From Lachnospiraceae bacterium (GTDB lineage Bacteria; Bacillota; Clostridia; Lachnospirales; Lachnospiraceae), in assembly GCA_017397645.1 (NCBI GenBank), contig JAFQIE010000033.1, positions 1 through 37,139 of the forward strand: a DNA stretch of 37,139 bases. Direction: 5' to 3'. Below, in pieces: positions 1,341 through 31,300 of this stretch. Numbering within the stretch: position 1 is the stretch's first letter; each line of letters begins with the position of its first letter. A program made the position numbers and the translations under genes. Below the pieces are notes generated by a model that was given only the letters and a program-made list of their open reading frames with translations, was not told where the DNA came from and made no database searches.

Positions 1341-1694
1341 ATGAGAATTACAGGATATGAGAATGAGATTGTAATCTTGAAGGAATTGGGTGATAGGATA
1401 AAGGAGTATCGTATTACACGCAATATTACGCAGTCGGAACTGGCTGAGAAATGTGGGATATCTACAAGTACAGAAAAACGTATTGAAAACGGAGATGATG
1501 TCAAACTATCGAATGTTATTAGGGTTATGATGGGGCTTGGGATTGCAGAAAATTTAGATATTCTGATTCCGGAGGAGCAACCGAGTTTTAAGGCGATTTT
1601 TGAAAAAAAACCCACGAGGAAAAGAGCACGTCAAGTAAATGATAAAAAGGGTACCACTTGGGTTTGGGGAGAGGATAAAAAGGAGGTATTATGA
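1341..1694 (+). CDS. hipB: HTH (XRE/Cro type) DNA-binding protein, HipB-like antitoxin
   Basis: 117 residues. An XRE-type helix-turn-helix spans about residues 14-75 (LGDRIKEYRITRNITQSELA, then a CGIS-S recognition helix). A basic, flexible C-terminal tail follows. The stop codon overlaps the start of the HipA-like gene (ATGA at 1691-1694), which implies translational coupling. By analogy with HipB, it should bind DNA as a dimer, repress its own promoter and sequester or recruit the kinase. The homology claim rests on domain and context, since the sequence is only generally XRE-like. Confidence 0.85.
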   Translation: MRITGYENEIVILKELGDRIKEYRITRNITQSELAEKCGISTSTEKRIENGDDVKLSNVIRVMMGLGIAENLDILIPEEQPSFKAIFEKKPTRKRARQVNDKKGTTWVWGEDKKEVL

Positions 1695-2980
1695 AGAAAA
1701 CAAGTACGGTTCGTGTAAAGATGTGGGGAACGACAGTAGGTTACCTGCATCAGGCAGAAAACGGAATCGTCGGATTTCAATATGACGAAGATTTTATAAC
1801 AAGTCAAATAGAAATTTCACCCTTGAGAATGCCTCTGTCCAACCTTACGTATTCTTTCCCTGCGCTTCCGGAAGGCACGTTTCACGGCCTGCCTGGAATG
1901 GTTGCAGATTCTCTTCCGGATAAATTTGGTAATATTGTTATCAACAAATATCTTGAAAGTCAAGGACGGGATGCTGACAGTTTATCTGTGATTGAAAAGT
2001 TGTGTTACACCGGCCAAAGAGGCATGGGAGCGTTGGAATATGAGCCGTCCTATGAATTGGTTGAAATAGATTCTGCTGTAGATATTGATGCACTTACGAA
2101 ATTAGCATCAGAAATTTTGTCCGAGAAGGAAAAAATTCACATTACAAAAAATGATAGTATGATGGCACAACTGATGGCATGTGGTTCTTCTGTCGGTGGA
2201 GCAAGAGCCAAAACACTTATTGCATGGAACCGGGAAACAAACGACATCAGGTCGGGACAAATCGATGCAGGTAGAGGTTACGAATACTGGTTATTGAAAT
2301 TTGACAATATCAAGAACAATAAAGATAAAGATGCCGTGCCGGACGAAGGTGAGTATACAAAAGTTGAGTACGCTTATTACCTTATGGCAAAAGAAGCCGG
2401 GATTCACATGAGCGAGTGTCGTCTTTATCAGGAAAATGAAGGCGCACATTTTATGACCAAAAGATTCGATAGAAAAGGGGCGGACGGAGAAAAGGTTCAT
2501 ATGCAAAGCCTATGTGCAATTTCTCATATGGATTTCAATTCACCACGTACTCATTCGTACGAGGAAGCTTTCGGAGTGATGAAAAAACTTAAACTTTCCT
2601 ACCGGGATTTCTTACAATTGTATCAGAGAATGGTTTTTAATGAATTTGCCAAAAACTACGATGATCACACAAAAAACATTTCCTTCCTTATGGATAAGAA
2701 AGGAACTTGGGCTTTGTCGCCGGCATATGATATCACTTTTTGTTATAAAAAAGACAGTATATGGGCCAGTGCCCACCAAATGCTAATTAACGGAAAATCG
2801 GACGATATCAAAAAAGAGGATCTTTTGCAAGTGGCACGAAATGTGGGGATAAGAAAAGCGGATGCGCTGAAAGGTATAGAGCAGGTTTTATATTCGGTCT
2901 CCAAATGGGAGGATTTCGCAAAGGAGGCTCAACTTTCAGAACGCAAATTCTTAAAAATAAAAGGACATATAAGAAGTTGA
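1691..2980 (+). CDS. hipA: HipA family serine/threonine kinase toxin
   Basis: 429 residues, the usual size for HipA. The N-terminal about 100 residues match the HipA N-1 subdomain (VKMWGTTVGYL; LPGMVADSLPDKFGN). The glycine/serine-rich loop GSSVGGARAK (165-174) fits the ATP-binding and autophosphorylation loop. The catalytic segment NYDDHTKNISF (Asp324) and the metal-binding PAYD (Asp347) are intact, so an active kinase is expected. E. coli HipA phosphorylates glutamyl-tRNA synthetase and induces dormancy; other HipA members use other targets, and the target here is unknown. The DUF3737 gene begins 14 nt downstream, so transcription may run on. Confidence 0.93.
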   Translation: MKKTSTVRVKMWGTTVGYLHQAENGIVGFQYDEDFITSQIEISPLRMPLSNLTYSFPALPEGTFHGLPGMVADSLPDKFGNIVINKYLESQGRDADSLSVIEKLCYTGQRGMGALEYEPSYELVEIDSAVDIDALTKLASEILSEKEKIHITKNDSMMAQLMACGSSVGGARAKTLIAWNRETNDIRSGQIDAGRGYEYWLLKFDNIKNNKDKDAVPDEGEYTKVEYAYYLMAKEAGIHMSECRLYQENEGAHFMTKRFDRKGADGEKVHMQSLCAISHMDFNSPRTHSYEEAFGVMKKLKLSYRDFLQLYQRMVFNEFAKNYDDHTKNISFLMDKKGTWALSPAYDITFCYKKDSIWASAHQMLINGKSDDIKKEDLLQVARNVGIRKADALKGIEQVLYSVSKWEDFAKEAQLSERKFLKIKGHIRS

Positions 2981-15391: not shown

Positions 15392-16408
15392 ATGAAATTT
15401 GCTGAAGGAAAAAAGAATGCTGTGATTCTGTATTTATTACAAAAAATCGAGCAAGATGATAAGTCTATTTCCAAAGCTGTTTCCGAAGCATTTTCGATAA
15501 ATCAAAATACTGTACACACCTATATAAATGAATTGGTAGACAACAGTATTATTGAACGGAAGAAACGCGGACAATATAGGCTGGTAAAAAAAGAATATGA
15601 GTATGATTTGAGGCGTTCGAACGGAGATTTAGACACGGATACCTACGCATATGATAATTGCATGTTCCCACATATTAAGGGATATGCACCAAATATCGAT
15701 GCAATTTGGAGCTATTCATTTAGCGAAATGATAAACAATGTGGTTGATCACTCCAATGCTGAGAATCTTAAGATAATTATTGAGCAAGATTACTTGAATA
15801 CTACGGCAATCATAGCAGATGATGGAATAGGAATCTTTAAGAAAATAAAGGAACATTTTGGATATAGCACCTTAGATGAGGCTATTTGTGAATTGTTTAA
15901 AGGAAAGCTCACAACAGACTCGGCGAATCATTCGGGAGAAGGTATTTTCTTCAGCTCTAAGCTAATGGATGATTTTTTTATCGTATCTGATGGGAAAATA
16001 TTTACGAATAATAAATATGATAATAGTATGATTGTCAGTTTGATTGAGAGTACCACCAAAGGCACATGTGTTATTATGAGCCTGTCCAATCATACACACA
16101 AGAGTCCCCGGGATGTATTTGATTTGTATGCAGATGTAGATGGAGGATTCACTAAAACAAGGATTCCATTAAAAAACATATTTGACAGCATGCCGGTATC
16201 TAGATCTCAGGCAAAGCGCGTGTGTAATCGATTAGAAAGGTTTGAAGAAGTCATATTAGATTTTGAAGATGTAGAGTGGATGGGACAAGGATTTGCGCAC
16301 CAGTTATTTGTTGTATTTGCAAATCAGCACCCGGAGATTCAGATGATTCCTGTGAATATGAATGAAGATGTTACTAAAATGCATACGCATGTCATTAAAT
16401 CTATTTAA
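15392..16408 (+). CDS. winged-HTH / GHKL ATPase / STAS-like (DUF4325) fusion protein
   Basis: 338 residues with three parts. Residues 1-70 form a winged helix (SINQNTVHTYINELVDNSII then a basic wing KKRGQYRL). Residues about 100-235 are a histidine-kinase-like ATPase: N box EMINNVVDHS (about 112-121), G1 ADDGIGIF (about 142-149) and G2 HSGEGIFFSS (about 179-188). No phosphoacceptor histidine domain is present. Residues about 255-338 match the STAS-like DUF4325 fold (VILDFEDVEWMGQGFAHQLF). An anti-sigma-kinase-like ATPase and a STAS-like partner are thus fused to a DNA-binding domain. By inference it is a one-protein signalling switch that may autoregulate through the upstream sites. Signal and targets are unknown. 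Confidence 0.82.
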   Translation: MKFAEGKKNAVILYLLQKIEQDDKSISKAVSEAFSINQNTVHTYINELVDNSIIERKKRGQYRLVKKEYEYDLRRSNGDLDTDTYAYDNCMFPHIKGYAPNIDAIWSYSFSEMINNVVDHSNAENLKIIIEQDYLNTTAIIADDGIGIFKKIKEHFGYSTLDEAICELFKGKLTTDSANHSGEGIFFSSKLMDDFFIVSDGKIFTNNKYDNSMIVSLIESTTKGTCVIMSLSNHTHKSPRDVFDLYADVDGGFTKTRIPLKNIFDSMPVSRSQAKRVCNRLERFEEVILDFEDVEWMGQGFAHQLFVVFANQHPEIQMIPVNMNEDVTKMHTHVIKSI

Positions 16409-16486: not shown

Positions 16487-16567
16487 GCGGATGTGGCGGA
16501 ATTGGCAGACGCGCCAGATTTAGGTTCTGGTGTCCCCGACGTGCAGGTTCAAGTCCTGTCATCCGCA
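16487..16567 (+). tRNA. tRNA-Leu (anticodon TAG)
   Basis: Acceptor GCGGATG/CATCCGC; anticodon stem CCAGA/TCTGG with loop TTTAGGT. A long variable arm (class II) follows, then T arm GTTCAAGTC; discriminator A. Confidence 0.97.
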
Positions 16568-17999: not shown

Positions 18000-18497
18000 T
18001 TAAACTTGGCACAGCGCCAAATAAGAATTGTGGTACTTCTCATTATAGGTTACATCTTCGTCAAACCATTCGGGTGGCAGGAAAGCCTGTGCAGATTCCT
18101 TGCTGCCAAATTCCACTTCAGCAATTACAAGTGGTGCCAGTTCACCCTCAAATACATCCAACTCAATGGTCAATGTATAGTCGTCGGGGGGAGCCGGAAA
18201 ACCTTCTTTTTGCTTAAACTGGGGATTGTTTAAAGGAATCAGATATCTGCGTTTGGAAATGATCCGTCCGTCGGCTTTTAATAATAAGTGATAATAAGCC
18301 TCCATCGTTAGGGGCAGATTGTATTCTTCCCTAGCCATCATGCCGCTGCCTTTGTAGGTCATGTAGTACTGTTCGTCCTCTTTTCGGATGCGGATGACGG
18401 GATTGGTATTCAAATAAGCCTGTTCGATGTGTCGAAAGGCATACTGGTCTAAATTATCAGGTAAATCTTTTACCGTAAATTTTCTTTCGATTTCCAT
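18000..18497 (-). CDS. CYTH domain protein (triphosphate tunnel enzyme)
   Basis: 165 residues. The N-terminal MEIERKF carries the ExExK signature (Glu2, Glu4, Lys6). Tunnel-strand motifs follow: RIRKEDEQYYMTYKG, ISKRRYLIP, TIELDVFEG and IAEVEFGS. CYTH proteins hydrolyse inorganic triphosphate or related triphosphates, or rarely make cAMP; bacterial short forms are usually triphosphatases. The ribosome site AAGAGG precedes ATG 18497. It is first gene of a two-gene operon with the MATE exporter. Confidence 0.9.
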   Translation of the reverse strand: MEIERKFTVKDLPDNLDQYAFRHIEQAYLNTNPVIRIRKEDEQYYMTYKGSGMMAREEYNLPLTMEAYYHLLLKADGRIISKRRYLIPLNNPQFKQKEGFPAPPDDYTLTIELDVFEGELAPLVIAEVEFGSKESAQAFLPPEWFDEDVTYNEKYHNSYLALCQV

Positions 18498-18552
18498 AAG
18501 AACCTCTTTTCGTATGTACGATGTTGTGTGATGGCGTGTGCCACCAATACAT

Positions 18553-18581
18553 ATTCTATCACAAATTGGATATTATCCCAA
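18553..18581 (-). promoter_or_regulatory. promoter of the CYTH-MATE operon
   Basis: On the minus strand, TTGGGA (18581-18576), a 17-nt spacer and TAGAAT (18558-18553). Confidence 0.55.
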
Positions 18582-18644
18582 GAAGATTTCTATAAAGATT
18601 TCGTTAAATACAATAGAAAAAATTCACATGGTTTTATTCGATTA

Positions 18645-18673
18645 TTGACATAATTATCCCCTGTGGATATAAT
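18645..18673 (+). promoter_or_regulatory. strong promoter of the repeat RNA
   Basis: Consensus TTGACA (18645-18650) and TATAAT (18668-18673) with a 17-nt spacer. Initiation is predicted near 18680, well ahead of any start codon, so a roughly 190-nt non-coding transcript comes first. Confidence 0.88.
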
Positions 18674-18680
18674 AATATTG

Positions 18681-18868
18681 TAAGAGAAGCGTGCTTCTCA
18701 AGTGGGCTAACACTTTAATCTGATATGCTAGTCAATCTTGTGGTTGACCGTTGGCGGACAACACTAAAATCCGATAGATATACCAACTATGTTGGTCGTT
18801 GGCAGACAACACTAAAATTAGCCGCAAAGAGAGAGTAAATAGCACTTTGGTGTTATTACTCTCTCTTT
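18681..18868 (+). ncRNA. tandem-repeat RNA, candidate type III antitoxin
   Basis: No reading frame is present. A 5' hairpin, GAGAAG/CTTCTC (18684-18699), is followed by two full units and one partial unit: 18701-18748, 18749-18796 and 18797 to about 18825. The last two share a 22-nt start with one mismatch (18749-18770 and 18797-18818). Each full unit can form two hairpins joined by an A/T-rich strand. In unit 2 they are GTTG/CAAC and ACCAAC/GTTGGT; in unit 1 they are AGTG/CACT and GTCAA/TTGAC. The sequences differ but pairing is kept, which supports an RNA structure. The array ends in a terminator hairpin directly before a nuclease gene, as in ToxIN-type systems. The antitoxin role is inferred. 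Confidence 0.7.
18826..18868 (+). terminator. Rho-independent hairpin between repeat RNA and nuclease gene
   Basis: A 13-bp perfect stem (18826-18838 with 18856-18868), extended inward through a short bulge to a TTTG loop. The following tract is only UUU then AUAAUUAUAA, so it should be leaky. In type III toxin-antitoxin loci such a hairpin sets the RNA-to-toxin ratio. Confidence 0.85.
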
Positions 18869-18893
18869 ATAATTATAAGGGGGGATTTATGGT

Positions 18894-19541
18894 ATGAAAT
18901 TTACCAAGGAAGGAGCAAGACGTACGGTCTTGAACTGCGCAAAGCAGTATCAAGAGAAACTGGAAAATAAAACACTACTTATTGTATACCGAGAAAGAAA
19001 AGATAATTCCATTCGGTCAATTGAGGTGACTTTTTATCCGAGAAACTATCAACATCTTACGGGTGTTGAAATTCAGGATGAAGAGGGCAACACTCTTCGA
19101 AATCAATCAATTAATTTTTATCGAAAGTGTATAGAGAATAAGCTTAGTACCGATGAAATCCAGTTTAAGAATGATGGAACAACTCAACTGAAACTGCAGG
19201 CATTACCGGCACTTATGGATGTTAAAAAAATCACTAAGATTACAGGCGATTACAATGGAAGGCGTCCTTATTTGCTAGTGGACAAAATAATGGGAGGTGT
19301 GAATTTTTGTTTGGGATTGACAAAAGAAGGTTCAGAGTATGTTCCGTCTTCTGCATTGTTAGAAGATATCAGAAATTTAACTAACTCGCCATCACAAGTG
19401 CTTGCAATATTTGAGAAAGACAAAGGAGACGAAATATATCGCACTGTAAGGCATGTGGCAAAGGGATTAAATATACATAACATCGATTTGCCTATAGAGA
19501 TAAAAGCGAAAATATGTATAGAAAAGGATGTTGAAAAGTAG
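18894..19541 (+). CDS. probable PBECR4 (BECR-fold) nuclease, candidate RNase toxin
   Basis: 215 residues, soluble, with no signal peptide. Landmarks read like PBECR4 proteins (phage Barnase-EndoU-ColicinE5/D-RelE-like nucleases). They are an N-terminal helix ending CAKQYQEKLENK, then IEVTFYPRNYQHLTGVE (about 41-57), FYRKCIENKLS, DGTTQLKLQALPAL, ITGDYNGRRPYLLVDKIMGG and LLEDIR. The HLTG segment is the most diagnostic. It lacks resemblance to ToxN, CptN or TenpN. The ribosome site AAGGGGGG precedes ATG 18894. A two-codon frame (ATG GTA TGA, 18889-18897) overlaps the start. Placed behind repeats and a leaky terminator, it is a strong toxin candidate. The family call is from memory and moderately sure. 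Confidence 0.65.
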   Translation: MKFTKEGARRTVLNCAKQYQEKLENKTLLIVYRERKDNSIRSIEVTFYPRNYQHLTGVEIQDEEGNTLRNQSINFYRKCIENKLSTDEIQFKNDGTTQLKLQALPALMDVKKITKITGDYNGRRPYLLVDKIMGGVNFCLGLTKEGSEYVPSSALLEDIRNLTNSPSQVLAIFEKDKGDEIYRTVRHVAKGLNIHNIDLPIEIKAKICIEKDVEK

Positions 19542-19558
19542 ACTCAATGAGCTATAAT
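19531..19558 (+). promoter_or_regulatory. promoter of the DJ-1/PfpI gene
   Basis: TTGAAA (19531-19536), a 16-nt spacer and TATAAT (19553-19558). The -35 lies in the last codons of the nuclease gene. Confidence 0.6.
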
Positions 19559-19589
19559 AATACCATAATAAAATTCCGGGAGGGAAGAC

Positions 19590-20138
19590 ATGAATAAATT
19601 AGCAATTTTTTTCGCAGATGGATATGAAGAAATTGAAGCGTTGACCGTGGTGGACATCTGCCGTAGATGTGGCTTGGAGATAGATATGGTGGCGGTAGAG
19701 GAAGTGGATAAGGTAACCGGCTCCCATGGTATTTGCGTGGAAATGGACAAGACCCTTTCCCAAGTGGATTTTGATTCTTACGATATGTTGGTCCTGCCCG
19801 GCGGTATGCCCGGCACGAAAAATTTGGAGGCCTGCGAGAAGTTGATGGAGCAGGTGGATGCCTTTAATGCGCAAGGAAAATATATTGCAGCCATTTGTGC
19901 GGCACCCAGTATTTTCGGGCACAGAGGTTTGGTGGATGGCAGAAGTGCCTGTTGTTATCCCGGATTTGAGAGCCATTTGACCGGTGCAAATGCCACAGAA
20001 AATATGGTGGAAATATCTGATCATGTGATTACTTCCCGTGGGATGGGAACAGCAATTCCGTTTGCACTGGCTATTGTCAGTGTGTTCTTGGGTGAAGAGA
20101 AGGCAAAAGAGATGGGCAAGTCCATTATTTATTGCTAA
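19590..20138 (+). CDS. DJ-1/PfpI family protein (YajL/ThiJ-like)
   Basis: 182 residues. Flavodoxin-like fold with the nucleophile elbow AAICAAPSIFG (Cys about 103) and the conserved Glu16 in FADGYEEIEAL. A C-terminal GMGTAIPFALAIV segment completes the signature. These proteins act in protection from carbonyl or oxidative damage; exact activity varies (deglycase, glyoxalase, chaperone) and is disputed. Ribosome site GGGAGGG before ATG 19590. The M18 peptidase gene starts 15 nt downstream, so the two are probably co-transcribed. Confidence 0.93.
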   Translation: MNKLAIFFADGYEEIEALTVVDICRRCGLEIDMVAVEEVDKVTGSHGICVEMDKTLSQVDFDSYDMLVLPGGMPGTKNLEACEKLMEQVDAFNAQGKYIAAICAAPSIFGHRGLVDGRSACCYPGFESHLTGANATENMVEISDHVITSRGMGTAIPFALAIVSVFLGEEKAKEMGKSIIYC

Positions 20139-21500: not shown

Positions 21501-21559
21501 ATTGTTTGTAAGGGTAATTTGTTATTGCTGGGAACTGTAATCGGTATTTGCACTAAGTA

Positions 21560-21784
21560 TATGCGGTTGAAGCTGCGAGTTTATTGATTTGGGCGGTATG
21601 CTACTGGACGCGTATGCGGTGGGAATTATGAGTTTGCTGATTTGAGCCGCATGATATCGGGAGCATATGCGGTGGAAATTATGAGTTTGTTGATTTGAAC
21701 CGTACGATACGGGGAGTATTTACGGTTATTTTCGGACTTTGCCTGATTTTGTCTGTAATAATGAGCATTTGTATGCGGTCAAAA
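21560..21784. repeat. degenerate 53-nt tandem repeat, four units plus a partial
   Basis: Units start at 21560, 21613, 21666, 21719 and 21772, exactly 53 nt apart each time. Each opens with TATGCGGT or a variant. Units 1-3 share a GAGTTTrTTGATTTG-like core and unit 4 is the most diverged. In unit 2, ATGCGG near the start and CCGCAT (21648-21653) can pair. The period is not a multiple of three and no long frame crosses it, so it is non-coding. The rest of the 21435-21937 gap holds only the terminator and a second short repeat. Confidence 0.8.
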
Positions 21785-28300: not shown

Positions 28301-31300
28301 CAGAACATCTGCAGATACATTGAACTGCCTCAGCTTCAGAAAATATCAGCTACCATCAGCCCTTATAATGCAGACCGCCAGGTGATCACCTGGGAAACCT
28401 CGGATGCTACAGTTCTGGAGATAGATGAACAGGGAAGACTTTATCCTTTGAAGAGTGGTTCTGTGATTGTCACTGCCACGGCGGACAGTGAGATTTCAAA
28501 GATTGAGGTCATTATATCCGAAAAAGAAGGATGGATGATCAAGGAAATCTATGTAGACGGTGAATTATTAGAGAACTTTAATGCAAATACCAGAGCATAT
28601 GAAATGAATTTATATCTGGGTACGACCACGGCACCCGCAGTTACCGCAGTGAGCTATAGCGGAGAGCCGGTGGATGTGAAGTTGCCCGATGAGCTTCCCG
28701 GAAGAGTGGAACTGAATGTACACGGCTATGATGTGAAATATACCATTGACATGGATAATACTTTAGTAAATTATGCGGTCAACGAGAATTTCAACCATAA
28801 GATAAACACGTCACTGACAAATGTTGTCTCCGAGCAGTATAACTGGATAGTCAATGGTACATCGGTGAAATATGACCCGTTCTGGAAGGTGATTCCCAGA
28901 AACTGGGTAAACCCCAATGAAGAAGGATACGGATGTATGTGGTTTCCTTATCGTCATGAGCTTGCCTGCCCTAGTGGTGCGACAGCGAGACTGCGGATAG
29001 GAGAGGAATATGAGTACTTCTTTGGTCCCCAGCAGGACGATATGCTCTTAATTATCGAACTTGAATTTGCCGTAAAGAATATGGCGGATAAGGTAGATGG
29101 TTTTAATATTACCTTCAATGAGCCGACAACTTCGGGAACCAAATCGATAGCGCGTATCAATGTGGTAAATAATGAAATCAAGCGTAGAACCAATTCTACT
29201 AAATTTAATCAGGGAACTATTCAAAAGATAGAGGATGAACGGTTTTATCAAATAAGGCTTGTTGTAGATAAAAAGACCGGCACCTTTGATTACTATTTGG
29301 ATGGCGTATTACTGGAAAAGGATGTTGCACCGTTCCACGCAGCAGTTACCGGTTTTGGAACTATAGGATTCCAAGTTCCACACCAGGCAGAATACTGTAA
29401 CGCTGAAATGTTCTTTGACAATATTAAGGTATATGAGCTGCAAAAGAGCGTGGTGGAAGAAACATTTGACCAGAACCCCGTTCCAACCCACTCACCGGAG
29501 CCGACAGCATCACCAAATCCTGCATGGGTAGAGTTCCCCGTGAACGAAACCTATGACGATTATGAGGTGGGCACTTTGGCCACTGCAACAGCAGAGAATA
29601 AGGGTTATATATGGGATATCGTAGGCGATGTTTATCCCGACCTTGTGAAGGTAGTGGCAAAGAGTACTGTAGACGAAAATGCGTCAAGTACTGATAATTG
29701 TTTGGAAATTCCTTACGACTACGCAGCAGGTGCAGGCACTTATCGGCTTACCCTGGACCAAAACCTAATGTATACATTAGGCGCAGAAGTTTCTGATAAT
29801 AAATCCATCGTGTTCGAAATGGATGTAGCGATAGACGGGGAAGGCACGAAGGAAAATGGATACAGAATTTACTTTAGTGAGAGACGAGGCGGAGGAAGTG
29901 CCTCCGTGGCAAGAATTGCCATTAAGGAAGATTCTGTCGCAAGAATGATTAATTCCAGTGTTGTCAATAAGAAAAAGATGTATCCCATGAGCAAGGGTGA
30001 GTTTGTTCATATGAAGGTGGTAATTAATAAGCAGACCAAACAGTTTACTTATTATGTTAACGGAACTCCTGTCGAAATAGATATAGCTCCTTTTTCATCT
30101 GGTGTTCCTAACTTCGGTACGATTTACTTTACGTCACTTGCAGAAACAACAAACGTAGATAGTAGCTTGTACGTTGACAATATGAAGGTATATGTGGAGG
30201 AGACGCAGCCTAGTCCTACAGAGGAACCCCTACCCACACTGAAACCCACAGCGGCACCTACAACGGCACCTACAGCGGTACCCACCGCGGTTCCCGGTGC
30301 AACTCCGACGGTAGCACCTACAGCAGCCCCTGAAGAAACCGCAGACCCGTATCATGTAAATCTCAATTTTGATGATGTTGCATTAGGAACCAAGATTAGT
30401 AGTTTTACTGCGGGAGATGTGTATTTTTGGAATACTGCCGGACGTGTAGGCAATGGAAAGGTGGTAGCCAAGACAGATGCGGTTGCGGATGCAAGTGCAA
30501 GTGACAAATGCTTGATACTGACCAGTGGCACTTTGCCGGGATATTATGTTCTACGACTTAGTAAACCGATTTATCTTGGGCAAGAGACGTTTAAGGATAG
30601 TAATCTGATTGTTGAGTTAGATGTTGCTATTGTAGGTACAGATACATCCAAGTCACCTATGGCGTGGTTCTATTTTGGTCAAAATGCAACCAATGACTAT
30701 GAAAACCAGCTTACAACGTTCTGCTTAGAGAATCATGATGGAACAGATCGTTGGGTACGTATTGATGATCAAAATACAGATGATGCTACGGCAACCACTA
30801 ACAGATATGTAGGACCCACAGTTGAAAGAGGGAAATTCGCAACATTAAAGCTTGTAGTGAACCGTGGAAATGAAAGTAATTCCTGTAGCTATTATTGGGA
30901 TGGTCAGTTGGTGAAAACCAGCACTTACAATGGCGCACCCTTCAATGAGAGCTCTTTCAACAAGGACAGCAATTGGGGCGGTATAGAATTCAGCGAATTG
31001 AAAATAGGTATACCCACACAGCTGAGCACTTCAGATCCCAAGATATATATCGATAATCTAAAGATATATACGGAAGCGGTTTCGACAGCGATGCCTACAA
31101 CGGAGCCTACCGTAGCACCCTCGGCAGAGCCTACAGCGGCACCCACAGTGGAGCCTACAGCAGAACCTACCGTAGCGCCTTCGGCAGAGCCTACAGCAGA
31201 ACCTACAGCAGAACCTGTGTTGCCACCTGATGAAACACCTACTGCGGAACCTACGATTCCGTCCGGTCCATCTATAGTGAGCGAGAATTATGATTCCAAA

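What the first reader, a model, noticed from the sequence alone, without database searches (positions are those of the whole stretch)
18645..19541. Candidate new type III toxin-antitoxin system: repeat RNA plus BECR-fold (PBECR4) nuclease
Seen: a consensus promoter, about 190 nt of non-coding DNA with two full 48-nt-scale repeat units and one partial, a long intrinsic hairpin with a weak U-tract, then a 215-residue gene. Known: ToxIN, CptIN and TenpIN share exactly this order, with repeats of roughly 35-50 nt, and their toxins are endoRNases of the ToxN (MazF/Kid-like) fold. Inferred: this toxin instead resembles PBECR4, a different RNase superfamily, so the locus could be a fourth kind of RNA-antitoxin system.
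Basis: partly seen in the sequence, partly recalled or inferred. Interest (0 to 1): 0.9.

Follow-up and report, generated by a model that had tools for sequence, protein, structure and literature searches.

The report
Nuclease gene paired with pseudoknot RNA
A bacterium carries a small two-part unit, a gene for a predicted RNA-cutting enzyme preceded by a gene for a knotted non-coding RNA; the two seem to have evolved as a pair, and the RNA most likely holds the enzyme in check, which would make it a new branch of RNA-controlled toxins.

Summary
At 18645-19541 lie a perfect promoter, a ~140-nt repeat RNA, a hairpin and a 215-aa gene matching Pfam PBECR4 (E=1.7e-38). Among 52 PBECR4 loci found by protein searches, 17 have the window's RNA type directly upstream and 18 have Rfam drum RNA at gathering score. 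The window's RNA carries two hairpin-plus-pseudoknot modules, backed by compensatory changes (34 of 38 pairs, 32 distinct RNAs). The pseudoknot resembles that described for the type III antitoxin CptI. RNA type follows the protein tree. RNAs also occur without the nuclease, beside nuclease stubs and in viral contigs. The protein does not resemble ToxN. Best reading: a type III-like RNA-antitoxin module with a BECR-fold toxin; it works like ToxIN/CptIN but is not a member of those families. Pairing of RNA and protein is well supported; toxicity, neutralisation and RNA processing are inferred. Stand-alone RNAs (10 of 18 RNA-first loci) could instead mean that the RNA has a role of its own. I found no paper linking PBECR4 to either RNA, but the main drum RNA paper was not available.

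The parts
18645..18673 (+). promoter TTGACA-17-TATAAT
   Evidence: 12 of 12 consensus match; a consensus match, not shown to be active
18683..18824 (+). type A RNA (not in Rfam): 5' hairpin, half repeat, two modules of hairpin plus pseudoknot
   Evidence: covariance model R1, 130.7 bits, E=2.3e-26 (the window is one of the 13 rows the model was built from); no Rfam match in its place up to E=10
18684..18699 (+). 5' hairpin P0 (GAGAAG/CTTCTC)
   Evidence: 6 of 6 pairs change on both sides among 32 rows, 78.1% of cells paired
18705..18823 (+). closing helix P1: 18705-18710 with 18818-18823
   Evidence: 6 of 6 pairs change on both sides; 97.9% paired on A6, 95.7% on A7
18719..18806 (+). long-range helix S2b: 18719-18722 with 18803-18806; joins the 5' half repeat to the last pseudoknot loop
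   Evidence: 4 of 4 pairs change on both sides; 100%, 95.4%
18731..18748 (+). hairpin P2a: 18731-18735 with 18744-18748
   Evidence: 94.3% on A6 but 49.2% on the sequence-only alignment A7, where the arms are poorly aligned
18750..18773 (+). pseudoknot of module 1: S1a 18750-18753/18759-18762, L1 = G18754, S2a 18755-18758/18770-18773, A-rich loop 18763-18769
   Evidence: S1a was not part of the model: 96.9%, 94.4%, 2 of 4 pairs change on both sides; S2a 98.4% and 98.1%, 4 of 4. Loops counted
18782..18796 (+). hairpin P2b: 18782-18787 with 18791-18796
   Evidence: 93.1% on A6, 54.1% on A7
18798..18817 (+). pseudoknot of module 2: S1b 18798-18801/18807-18810, L1 = G18802, S2b 5' strand 18803-18806, A-rich stretch 18811-18817
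   Evidence: S1b was not part of the model: 100%, 97.2%, 2 of 4 pairs change on both sides
18826..18868 (+). terminator-like hairpin between RNA and gene
   Evidence: 13-nt perfect inverted repeat, weak T tract; hairpin present in the fold
18894..19541 (+). PBECR4 gene, 215 aa; His54 (19053-19055) and Ser153 (19350-19352) are the candidate catalytic pair
   Evidence: PF18813 E=1.7e-38; H54 29 of 29, S/T at 153 in 28 of 29 homologues; their role is inferred from Iyer et al. 2017 (passages)

Best explanation
[quoted passage not shown] One promoter transcribes the RNA; the hairpin after it stops most transcripts, so the RNA is in excess and only some transcripts reach the nuclease gene (inferred from the layout). 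The PBECR4 protein is a BECR-fold endoribonuclease (predicted). The RNA folds into two modules, each a hairpin plus a pseudoknot, and the 5' half repeat closes the array by pairing with the loop of the last pseudoknot (supported by covariation). The nuclease probably binds the pseudoknots and may trim the array into ~50-nt units, and the bound RNA blocks its active site (inferred by analogy with ToxI and CptI). When RNA supply stops, for instance during phage attack, the nuclease would be freed and stop growth (inferred). A sister clade does the same with drum RNA in place of the pseudoknot array (association shown, role inferred).
For: Protein: PBECR4, conserved H and S/T as in BECR RNases. 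Layout: of 52 PBECR4 loci brought in by protein searches, 17 carry type A and 18 carry drum at gathering score directly upstream, 5 more carry sub-threshold drum matches in place. RNA-first test: a pattern from the RNA alone found 8 viral contigs; 8 of 8 match the model and 5 of 8 have PBECR4 next downstream, two of the five near-copies. Structure; loop 1 a single G in 25 of 32 (module 1) and 31 of 32 (module 2), no gap between the stems in 31 of 32, A-rich loop of 7-8 nt; CptI is described with a one-base G loop 1, coaxial stems and an A-rich loop 2 (PMC4627078 and PMC5086642, passages). Co-inheritance: type A is one side of a branch (97/84) and A against drum needs one change on a 50-row tree. 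Asymmetry: RNA without nuclease in 10 of 18 type A loci; RNA next to a nuclease stub or split gene in L058, L082, L083, L049, L050; the two of 52 loci where I saw no RNA hold a split copy (L016) and a copy short at its N-terminus (L033). Unit: relatives of the genus have the flanking gene pair without the insert.
Against: No experiment: toxicity, rescue, binding and processing are not shown. Ten of 18 type A loci and 9 of 23 drum loci have no PBECR4 downstream; one Clostridia genome (G344) holds three stand-alone type A RNAs and another (G334) five stand-alone drum RNAs, which simple loss of the toxin explains poorly. Drum RNA is single-copy, so tandem repeats are not general. Eight loci have other leaders that I judged by eye only. 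The hairpin is a weak terminator. A hairpin plus T run upstream is common also for other genes: 38 of 107 controls against 41 of 52.
Confidence: 0.7

Rival explanations
1. The RNA is a positive partner: PBECR4 is an RNA-dependent or RNA-guided nuclease (a defence ribonucleoprotein), and the RNA directs or activates it instead of blocking it.
For: Co-inheritance and tight association fit any obligate ribonucleoprotein. The loops of the P2 hairpins vary between loci. For AbiF, which has the same layout, authors discuss an RNA-guided ancestry of Cas13 (PMC12373285, passages).
Against: RNA kept while the nuclease is a stub (L058, L082, L083) and RNA alone in viral contigs (L097-L099) fit a protective RNA better. 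The pseudoknot has the loop pattern reported for the antitoxin CptI.
Confidence: 0.14
2. The RNA is a cis-acting leader (attenuator or autoregulatory site) that only sets expression of the nuclease gene.
For: It lies between promoter and gene and ends in a hairpin.
Against: Type A and drum RNAs occur with hairpins after them and no nuclease gene (10 of 18 and 9 of 23 loci), including viral contigs. A leader has no use there.
Confidence: 0.08
3. An independent small RNA (with its own trans role, for example sRNA or decoy) to which PBECR4 is secondarily attached.
For: Many stand-alone copies, some multi-copy in one genome (G344 three type A, G334 five drum), at unlike sites as far as the 3-kb loci show.
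Against: Two unrelated RNA types with the same nuclease family, each tracking its own protein clade, makes the nuclease the constant partner.
Confidence: 0.06
4. An ordinary ToxIN, CptIN or TenpIN locus.
For: Same gene order, repeat length in the known range (36-50 nt, PMC12373285 passages) and a pseudoknot RNA.
Against: Profile comparison with 13 ToxN proteins gives probability 0.1-0.6% against 96.9% between the two PBECR4 clades; PF13958 not hit by any of 29 homologues at E<=1; the RNA model finds nothing at 14 ToxN loci. CptN and TenpN profiles were not available.
Confidence: 0.02

Closest known systems
CptIN (type III toxin-antitoxin, Eubacterium rectale)
   Same: Promoter, ~2 repeats, hairpin, toxin gene; H-type pseudoknot with a one-base G loop 1, coaxial stems and an A-rich loop (PMC4627078, PMC5086642 passages; our counts).
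   Different: Toxin is PBECR4; each repeat carries an extra hairpin; the array is closed by long-range helices P1 and S2b.
ToxIN / AbiQ (type III)
   Same: Gene order and repeat pseudoknot RNA.
   Different: No sequence relation of the protein; different RNA; two modules here against 2.8-5.5 repeats reported for ToxI and antiQ (PMC5086642).
AbiF-RCd22 (Clostridioides difficile prophage)
   Same: A non-ToxN protein whose upstream RNA, with two repeated motifs and a terminator, neutralises it by direct binding (PMC12373285 passages).
   Different: Abi_2 family protein, motif RF03085; the window's protein and RNA match neither.
drum RNA (RF02958)
   Same: Stands at the same place upstream of the sister PBECR4 clade.
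   Different: The window's own RNA is not drum (no match up to E=10); drum is single-copy. The papers in which I saw drum mentioned give it no function (passages).
PBECR domains of phage polyvalent proteins
   Same: Same predicted BECR RNase fold family and H plus S/T residues (PMC5512222, passages).
   Different: There described in large virion-linked proteins or solo in phages, without an RNA partner in the passages that I saw; here a solo, mostly chromosomal gene with an RNA.

Membership tests
PBECR4 (PF18813) | score above the curated cut-off over most of the profile | tested here: met
   133.3 bits against 27, profile 2-185 of 188
[quoted passage not shown]
   H54 29 of 29; S/T at 153 in 28 of 29. 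Placement of the residues in helix and strand was not tested, the structure predictor being off
Type III TA (ToxIN/CptIN/TenpIN) | tandem nucleotide repeats upstream of the gene | tested here: met
   two 28-nt copies, 48-nt spacing, plus a half unit; short, and not reported by Tandem Repeats Finder
Type III TA (ToxIN/CptIN/TenpIN) | palindrome acting as terminator between repeats and gene | tested here: inconclusive
   13-nt perfect palindrome in place but weak T tract, not picked by the scanner
Type III TA (ToxIN/CptIN/TenpIN) | pseudoknotted RNA | tested here: met
   S1 and S2 helices covary
Type III TA (ToxIN/CptIN/TenpIN) | toxin homologous to ToxN | tested here: not met
   hhalign probability 0.1-0.6%; no PF13958 match. 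CptN and TenpN not tested apart
Type III TA (ToxIN/CptIN/TenpIN) | toxin cleaves RNA, is toxic, processes the antitoxin and is neutralised by it | not testable with these tools
   needs experiment
drum RNA (RF02958), for the window's RNA | reaches gathering score | tested here: not met
   no match in 18400-19600 up to E=10
AbiF-type RNA system | Abi_2 protein and abiF RNA motif | tested here: not met
   no such Pfam or Rfam match
Known defence systems | match to a PADLOC model | tested here: not met
   window protein none up to E=10; 29 homologues, only single weak matches, best E=0.0018

The most novel reading that the evidence does not exclude
PBECR4 nucleases are a toxin superfamily, unrelated to ToxN, held in check by cognate structured RNAs of at least two kinds. 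This gives the drum RNA family a function (antitoxin), and phages carry stand-alone copies of the RNA as decoys that disarm the nuclease.
Probability: 0.5. Interest if true: 0.9.

Novelty: new variant of a known kind. Interest (0 to 1): 0.8.

Why it matters
If true, RNA antitoxins are not tied to the ToxN fold: nature has paired RNA inhibitors with a BECR RNase, with two unlike RNA architectures in two sister clades, one of which shares the pseudoknot plan of CptI. It would give an orphan Rfam family (drum) a testable role, add a likely phage-response module present in 29 of 391 sampled genomes of the class, and offer phage-borne RNA decoys as a parallel to pseudo-ToxI (PMC3475682, passages).

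Tried and rejected
Rejected: ordinary ToxIN member; drum RNA in the window; phage or plasmid cargo in general: tblastn with the window protein gave 3 of 50,697 phage records and 0 of 72,556 plasmids, and protein-based scans of viral contigs found nothing with the window protein or A3 and one locus with A4. Known defence gene, NCBIfam family (only single weak matches), solved relative (nothing relevant).

The simple hairpin test separates PBECR4 from controls only modestly (41 of 52 against 38 of 107); its start-codon choice misplaces some genes.

Rows dropped: in the tree broken copies L012, L016, L019, L049, L050 were left out, L043 was lost because I gave wrong coordinates, L020 was cut to 260 residues; several long branches are flagged there, L053 above all. 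A1 held 13 type A RNAs, leaving out L035 and the near-copy L037. A6 was made from 32 sources, leaving out L069 (34 bits, the weakest hit), L097 (cut by the contig end), L102 (near-copy) and L037; A7 held 27 of its rows.

Full report
What is there. The window lies in a 1.8-Mb, 74%-complete genome of 46 contigs; its nearest named relatives are Lachnospiraceae MAGs. Between a CYTH-domain gene (18000-18497, minus strand) and a DJ-1/PfpI gene (19590-20138) sit a 12-of-12 promoter at 18645-18673, a non-coding stretch with two 28-nt direct repeats 48 nt apart, a hairpin, and a 215-aa gene. The gene matches Pfam PBECR4 at E=1.7e-38 and nothing in NCBIfam or PADLOC up to E=10. The non-coding stretch has no Rfam match of its own (the weak matches listed there lie elsewhere, far below gathering scores, or, for one, spans the hairpin and gene start at 13 bits against 298). 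Tandem Repeats Finder did not report the array, so on the window alone the repeats are modest.

Relatives. PBECR4 occurs in 14 of 99 genomes near the window, 29 of 391 of its class and 3 of 299 of its phylum (including the window's own genome and one already seen). Together this gave 52 loci after removal of three duplicates; some are near-copies (L036/L037; L038/L039/L040/L051). Directly upstream of the gene, 17 of 52 carry the window's RNA type (type A), 18 of 52 carry Rfam drum RNA at or above gathering score, and 5 more have weaker drum matches in place (L095, L050, L041, L042, L017). Of the other 12, ten have a promoter-like, non-coding leader ending in a hairpin by eye (L013, L014, L015, L020, L031, L043, L044, L045, L046, L048), and two have none that I could see: L016, split by a stop, and L033, short at its N-terminus. 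I make no statistical claim for those judged by eye. An automatic test for a hairpin plus T run within 110 nt of the start was positive for 41 of 52 PBECR4 genes and 38 of 107 other genes of the same loci.

RNA structure. On an alignment of 32 distinct type A RNAs fitted to a covariance model, 94.1% of cells pair, 34 of 38 pairs show changes on both sides, and 0 of 500 shuffles reach this; sliding the partners by 1-3 columns drops pairing to 24-40%. That alignment leans towards the modelled helices, so two checks matter. The S1 helices, not in the model, pair in 96.9% and 100% of cells, with double changes in two pairs each. On a sequence-only alignment of 27 RNAs the helices P1, S2b, S1a, S2a and S1b still pair in 94-98%, while the two P2 hairpins fall to 49% and 54% because their arms are not aligned in register. 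S1 and S2 interleave as an H-type pseudoknot: loop 1 is a single G in 25 of 32 (module 1) and 31 of 32 (module 2), there is no gap between the stems in 31 of 32, and the A-rich loop is 7-8 nt long. In the last module the S2 partner is not downstream but at the 5' end of the RNA, so the array closes on itself; S2a and S2b differ in sequence in 29 of 32 RNAs. The crystal structure paper on CptI describes an H-type pseudoknot with a one-base G loop 1 and a long, A-minor-forming loop 2 (PMC4627078, passages), a close parallel.

The pair evolves together. On a 50-row protein tree type A is one side of a branch (97/84) and 96% of 200 bootstrap trees agree; A against drum (weak drum included) needs a single change; all four labels need 6 changes against 24.6 in shuffles. 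Four of the 20 type A rows were found through the RNA, so their label is not independent. Long branches are flagged and the root is unknown. L031, L045, L013 and L015, next to the type A clade, carry other leaders; that of L045 reads by eye as two further pseudoknots.

RNA without nuclease. A scan of 391 class genomes with the RNA model gave 18 loci in 16 genomes: 7 have PBECR4 downstream (one of these, L055/L049, interrupted by a stop), L058 keeps RNA and hairpin but only an N-terminal stub of the gene, and 10 have none (one of them, L069, is a weak 34-bit match). Drum gave 23 loci in 18 genomes: 14 with PBECR4 or a piece of it (three of these truncated: L082, L083, L089) and 9 without. A pattern from the RNA alone found 8 viral contigs; all 8 match the model, 5 have PBECR4 downstream and L097, L098, L099 do not. 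L099 has the RNA just after endolysin and holin genes, L097 shares its contig with a terminase gene, while for L098 only a DNA invertase was recognised. This is the pattern expected of a protective RNA, retained when the toxin decays and useful to phages as pseudo-ToxI is (PMC3475682, passages). It can also be read otherwise: three stand-alone copies in G344 and five in G334 may point to a separate role.

A unit that inserts. Of 61 genus genomes, 56 have the DJ-1 neighbour; loci were given for 30, one being the window. In 25 of the other 29 the CYTH gene lies beside it, divergent, with 110-719 nt between them in 24 and 1309 nt in one; the window has 1093 nt. None of the 29 has PBECR4 or the RNA there. 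RNA and gene thus came or went together.

Protein. His54 and Gly57 are invariant in 29 of 29 homologues and position 153 is S/T in 28 of 29, as expected of BECR RNases with a helix His and a C-terminal S/T (PMC5512222, passages). Profile comparison with 13 ToxN proteins from related genomes gives 0.1-0.6% probability, against 96.9% between the type A and drum clades of PBECR4. The RNA model finds nothing at 14 ToxN loci. The fold itself could not be predicted.

Reading. The most likely function is a toxin-antitoxin module of type III style with an unrelated toxin. Shown: gene identity, RNA structure by covariation, association, co-inheritance, RNA persistence without nuclease, insertion as a unit. 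Inferred: RNase activity, toxicity, neutralisation, processing, response to phage. It is not a member of ToxIN/CptIN/TenpIN as far as tested (ToxN homology not met), but failing that test does not weaken 'works like'. AbiF-RCd22 (PMC12373285, passages) is a precedent for a non-ToxN protein with a type III-like RNA.

Literature. Searches for PBECR4 (0 papers), drum RNA (1 paper), drum with Rfam terms, PBECR/BECR (18 papers listed) and type III systems showed no paper that links PBECR4 to an RNA; I saw listings, abstracts' beginnings and passages, no whole paper. The paper that I recall as the source of drum (NAR 2017) was not held, preprints are not in the library, and its text may mention neighbours.

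Noticed in passing
type A RNAs, hairpin after the RNA (e.g. L030, L007, L011): The terminator-like hairpin often holds the motif CTGCGG (or CTACGG, TTGCGG) in or near its loop: 14 of 32 type A RNAs, not in the window; perhaps a protein or RNA contact.
   Followed up: partly
L045 upstream of PBECR4: Another leader type that reads by eye as two tandem H-type pseudoknots with 5-8-bp stems.
   Followed up: no
L064, L065, L066, L067, L070, L071 (one unnamed genus of the class): Stand-alone type A RNAs, three in one genome (G344), with promoter-like sequence and hairpin but no nuclease.
   Followed up: partly
L090-L093 (G334): Dispersed toxin-less drum RNAs that share the same flanking sequence, as if copied by a mobile element.
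   Followed up: no
L053, Enterococcus phage Efs 1-1-1: Three copies of RatA (type I RNA antitoxin, RF01776) surround the type A RNA and PBECR4 gene.
   Followed up: no
G037 contig 29 (L020, L117): A ToxN-family match (525-1022) lies about 1.4 kb from a PBECR4 match (2411-2878) on the same strand.
   Followed up: no
window 1341-2980: HTH plus HipA-like gene pair, a probable type II toxin-antitoxin locus.
   Followed up: no
window 21559-21716: Three tandem copies of a 53-nt unit between an M18 peptidase gene and a CspB-type subtilase gene.
   Followed up: no
window 15392-16408: 338-aa protein with HTH-like start, HATPase domain and C-terminal STAS-like DUF4325, directly before a tRNA at 16487.
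   Followed up: no
window 31093-31216: Twelve-base repeats encode a Pro/Thr/Ala-rich linker in a 2220-aa predicted secreted protein.
   Followed up: no
L120, between CYTH and DJ-1 genes: A different insert (353-aa ORF) at the same intergenic site as the window's module; possibly a site that takes up cargo.
   Followed up: no
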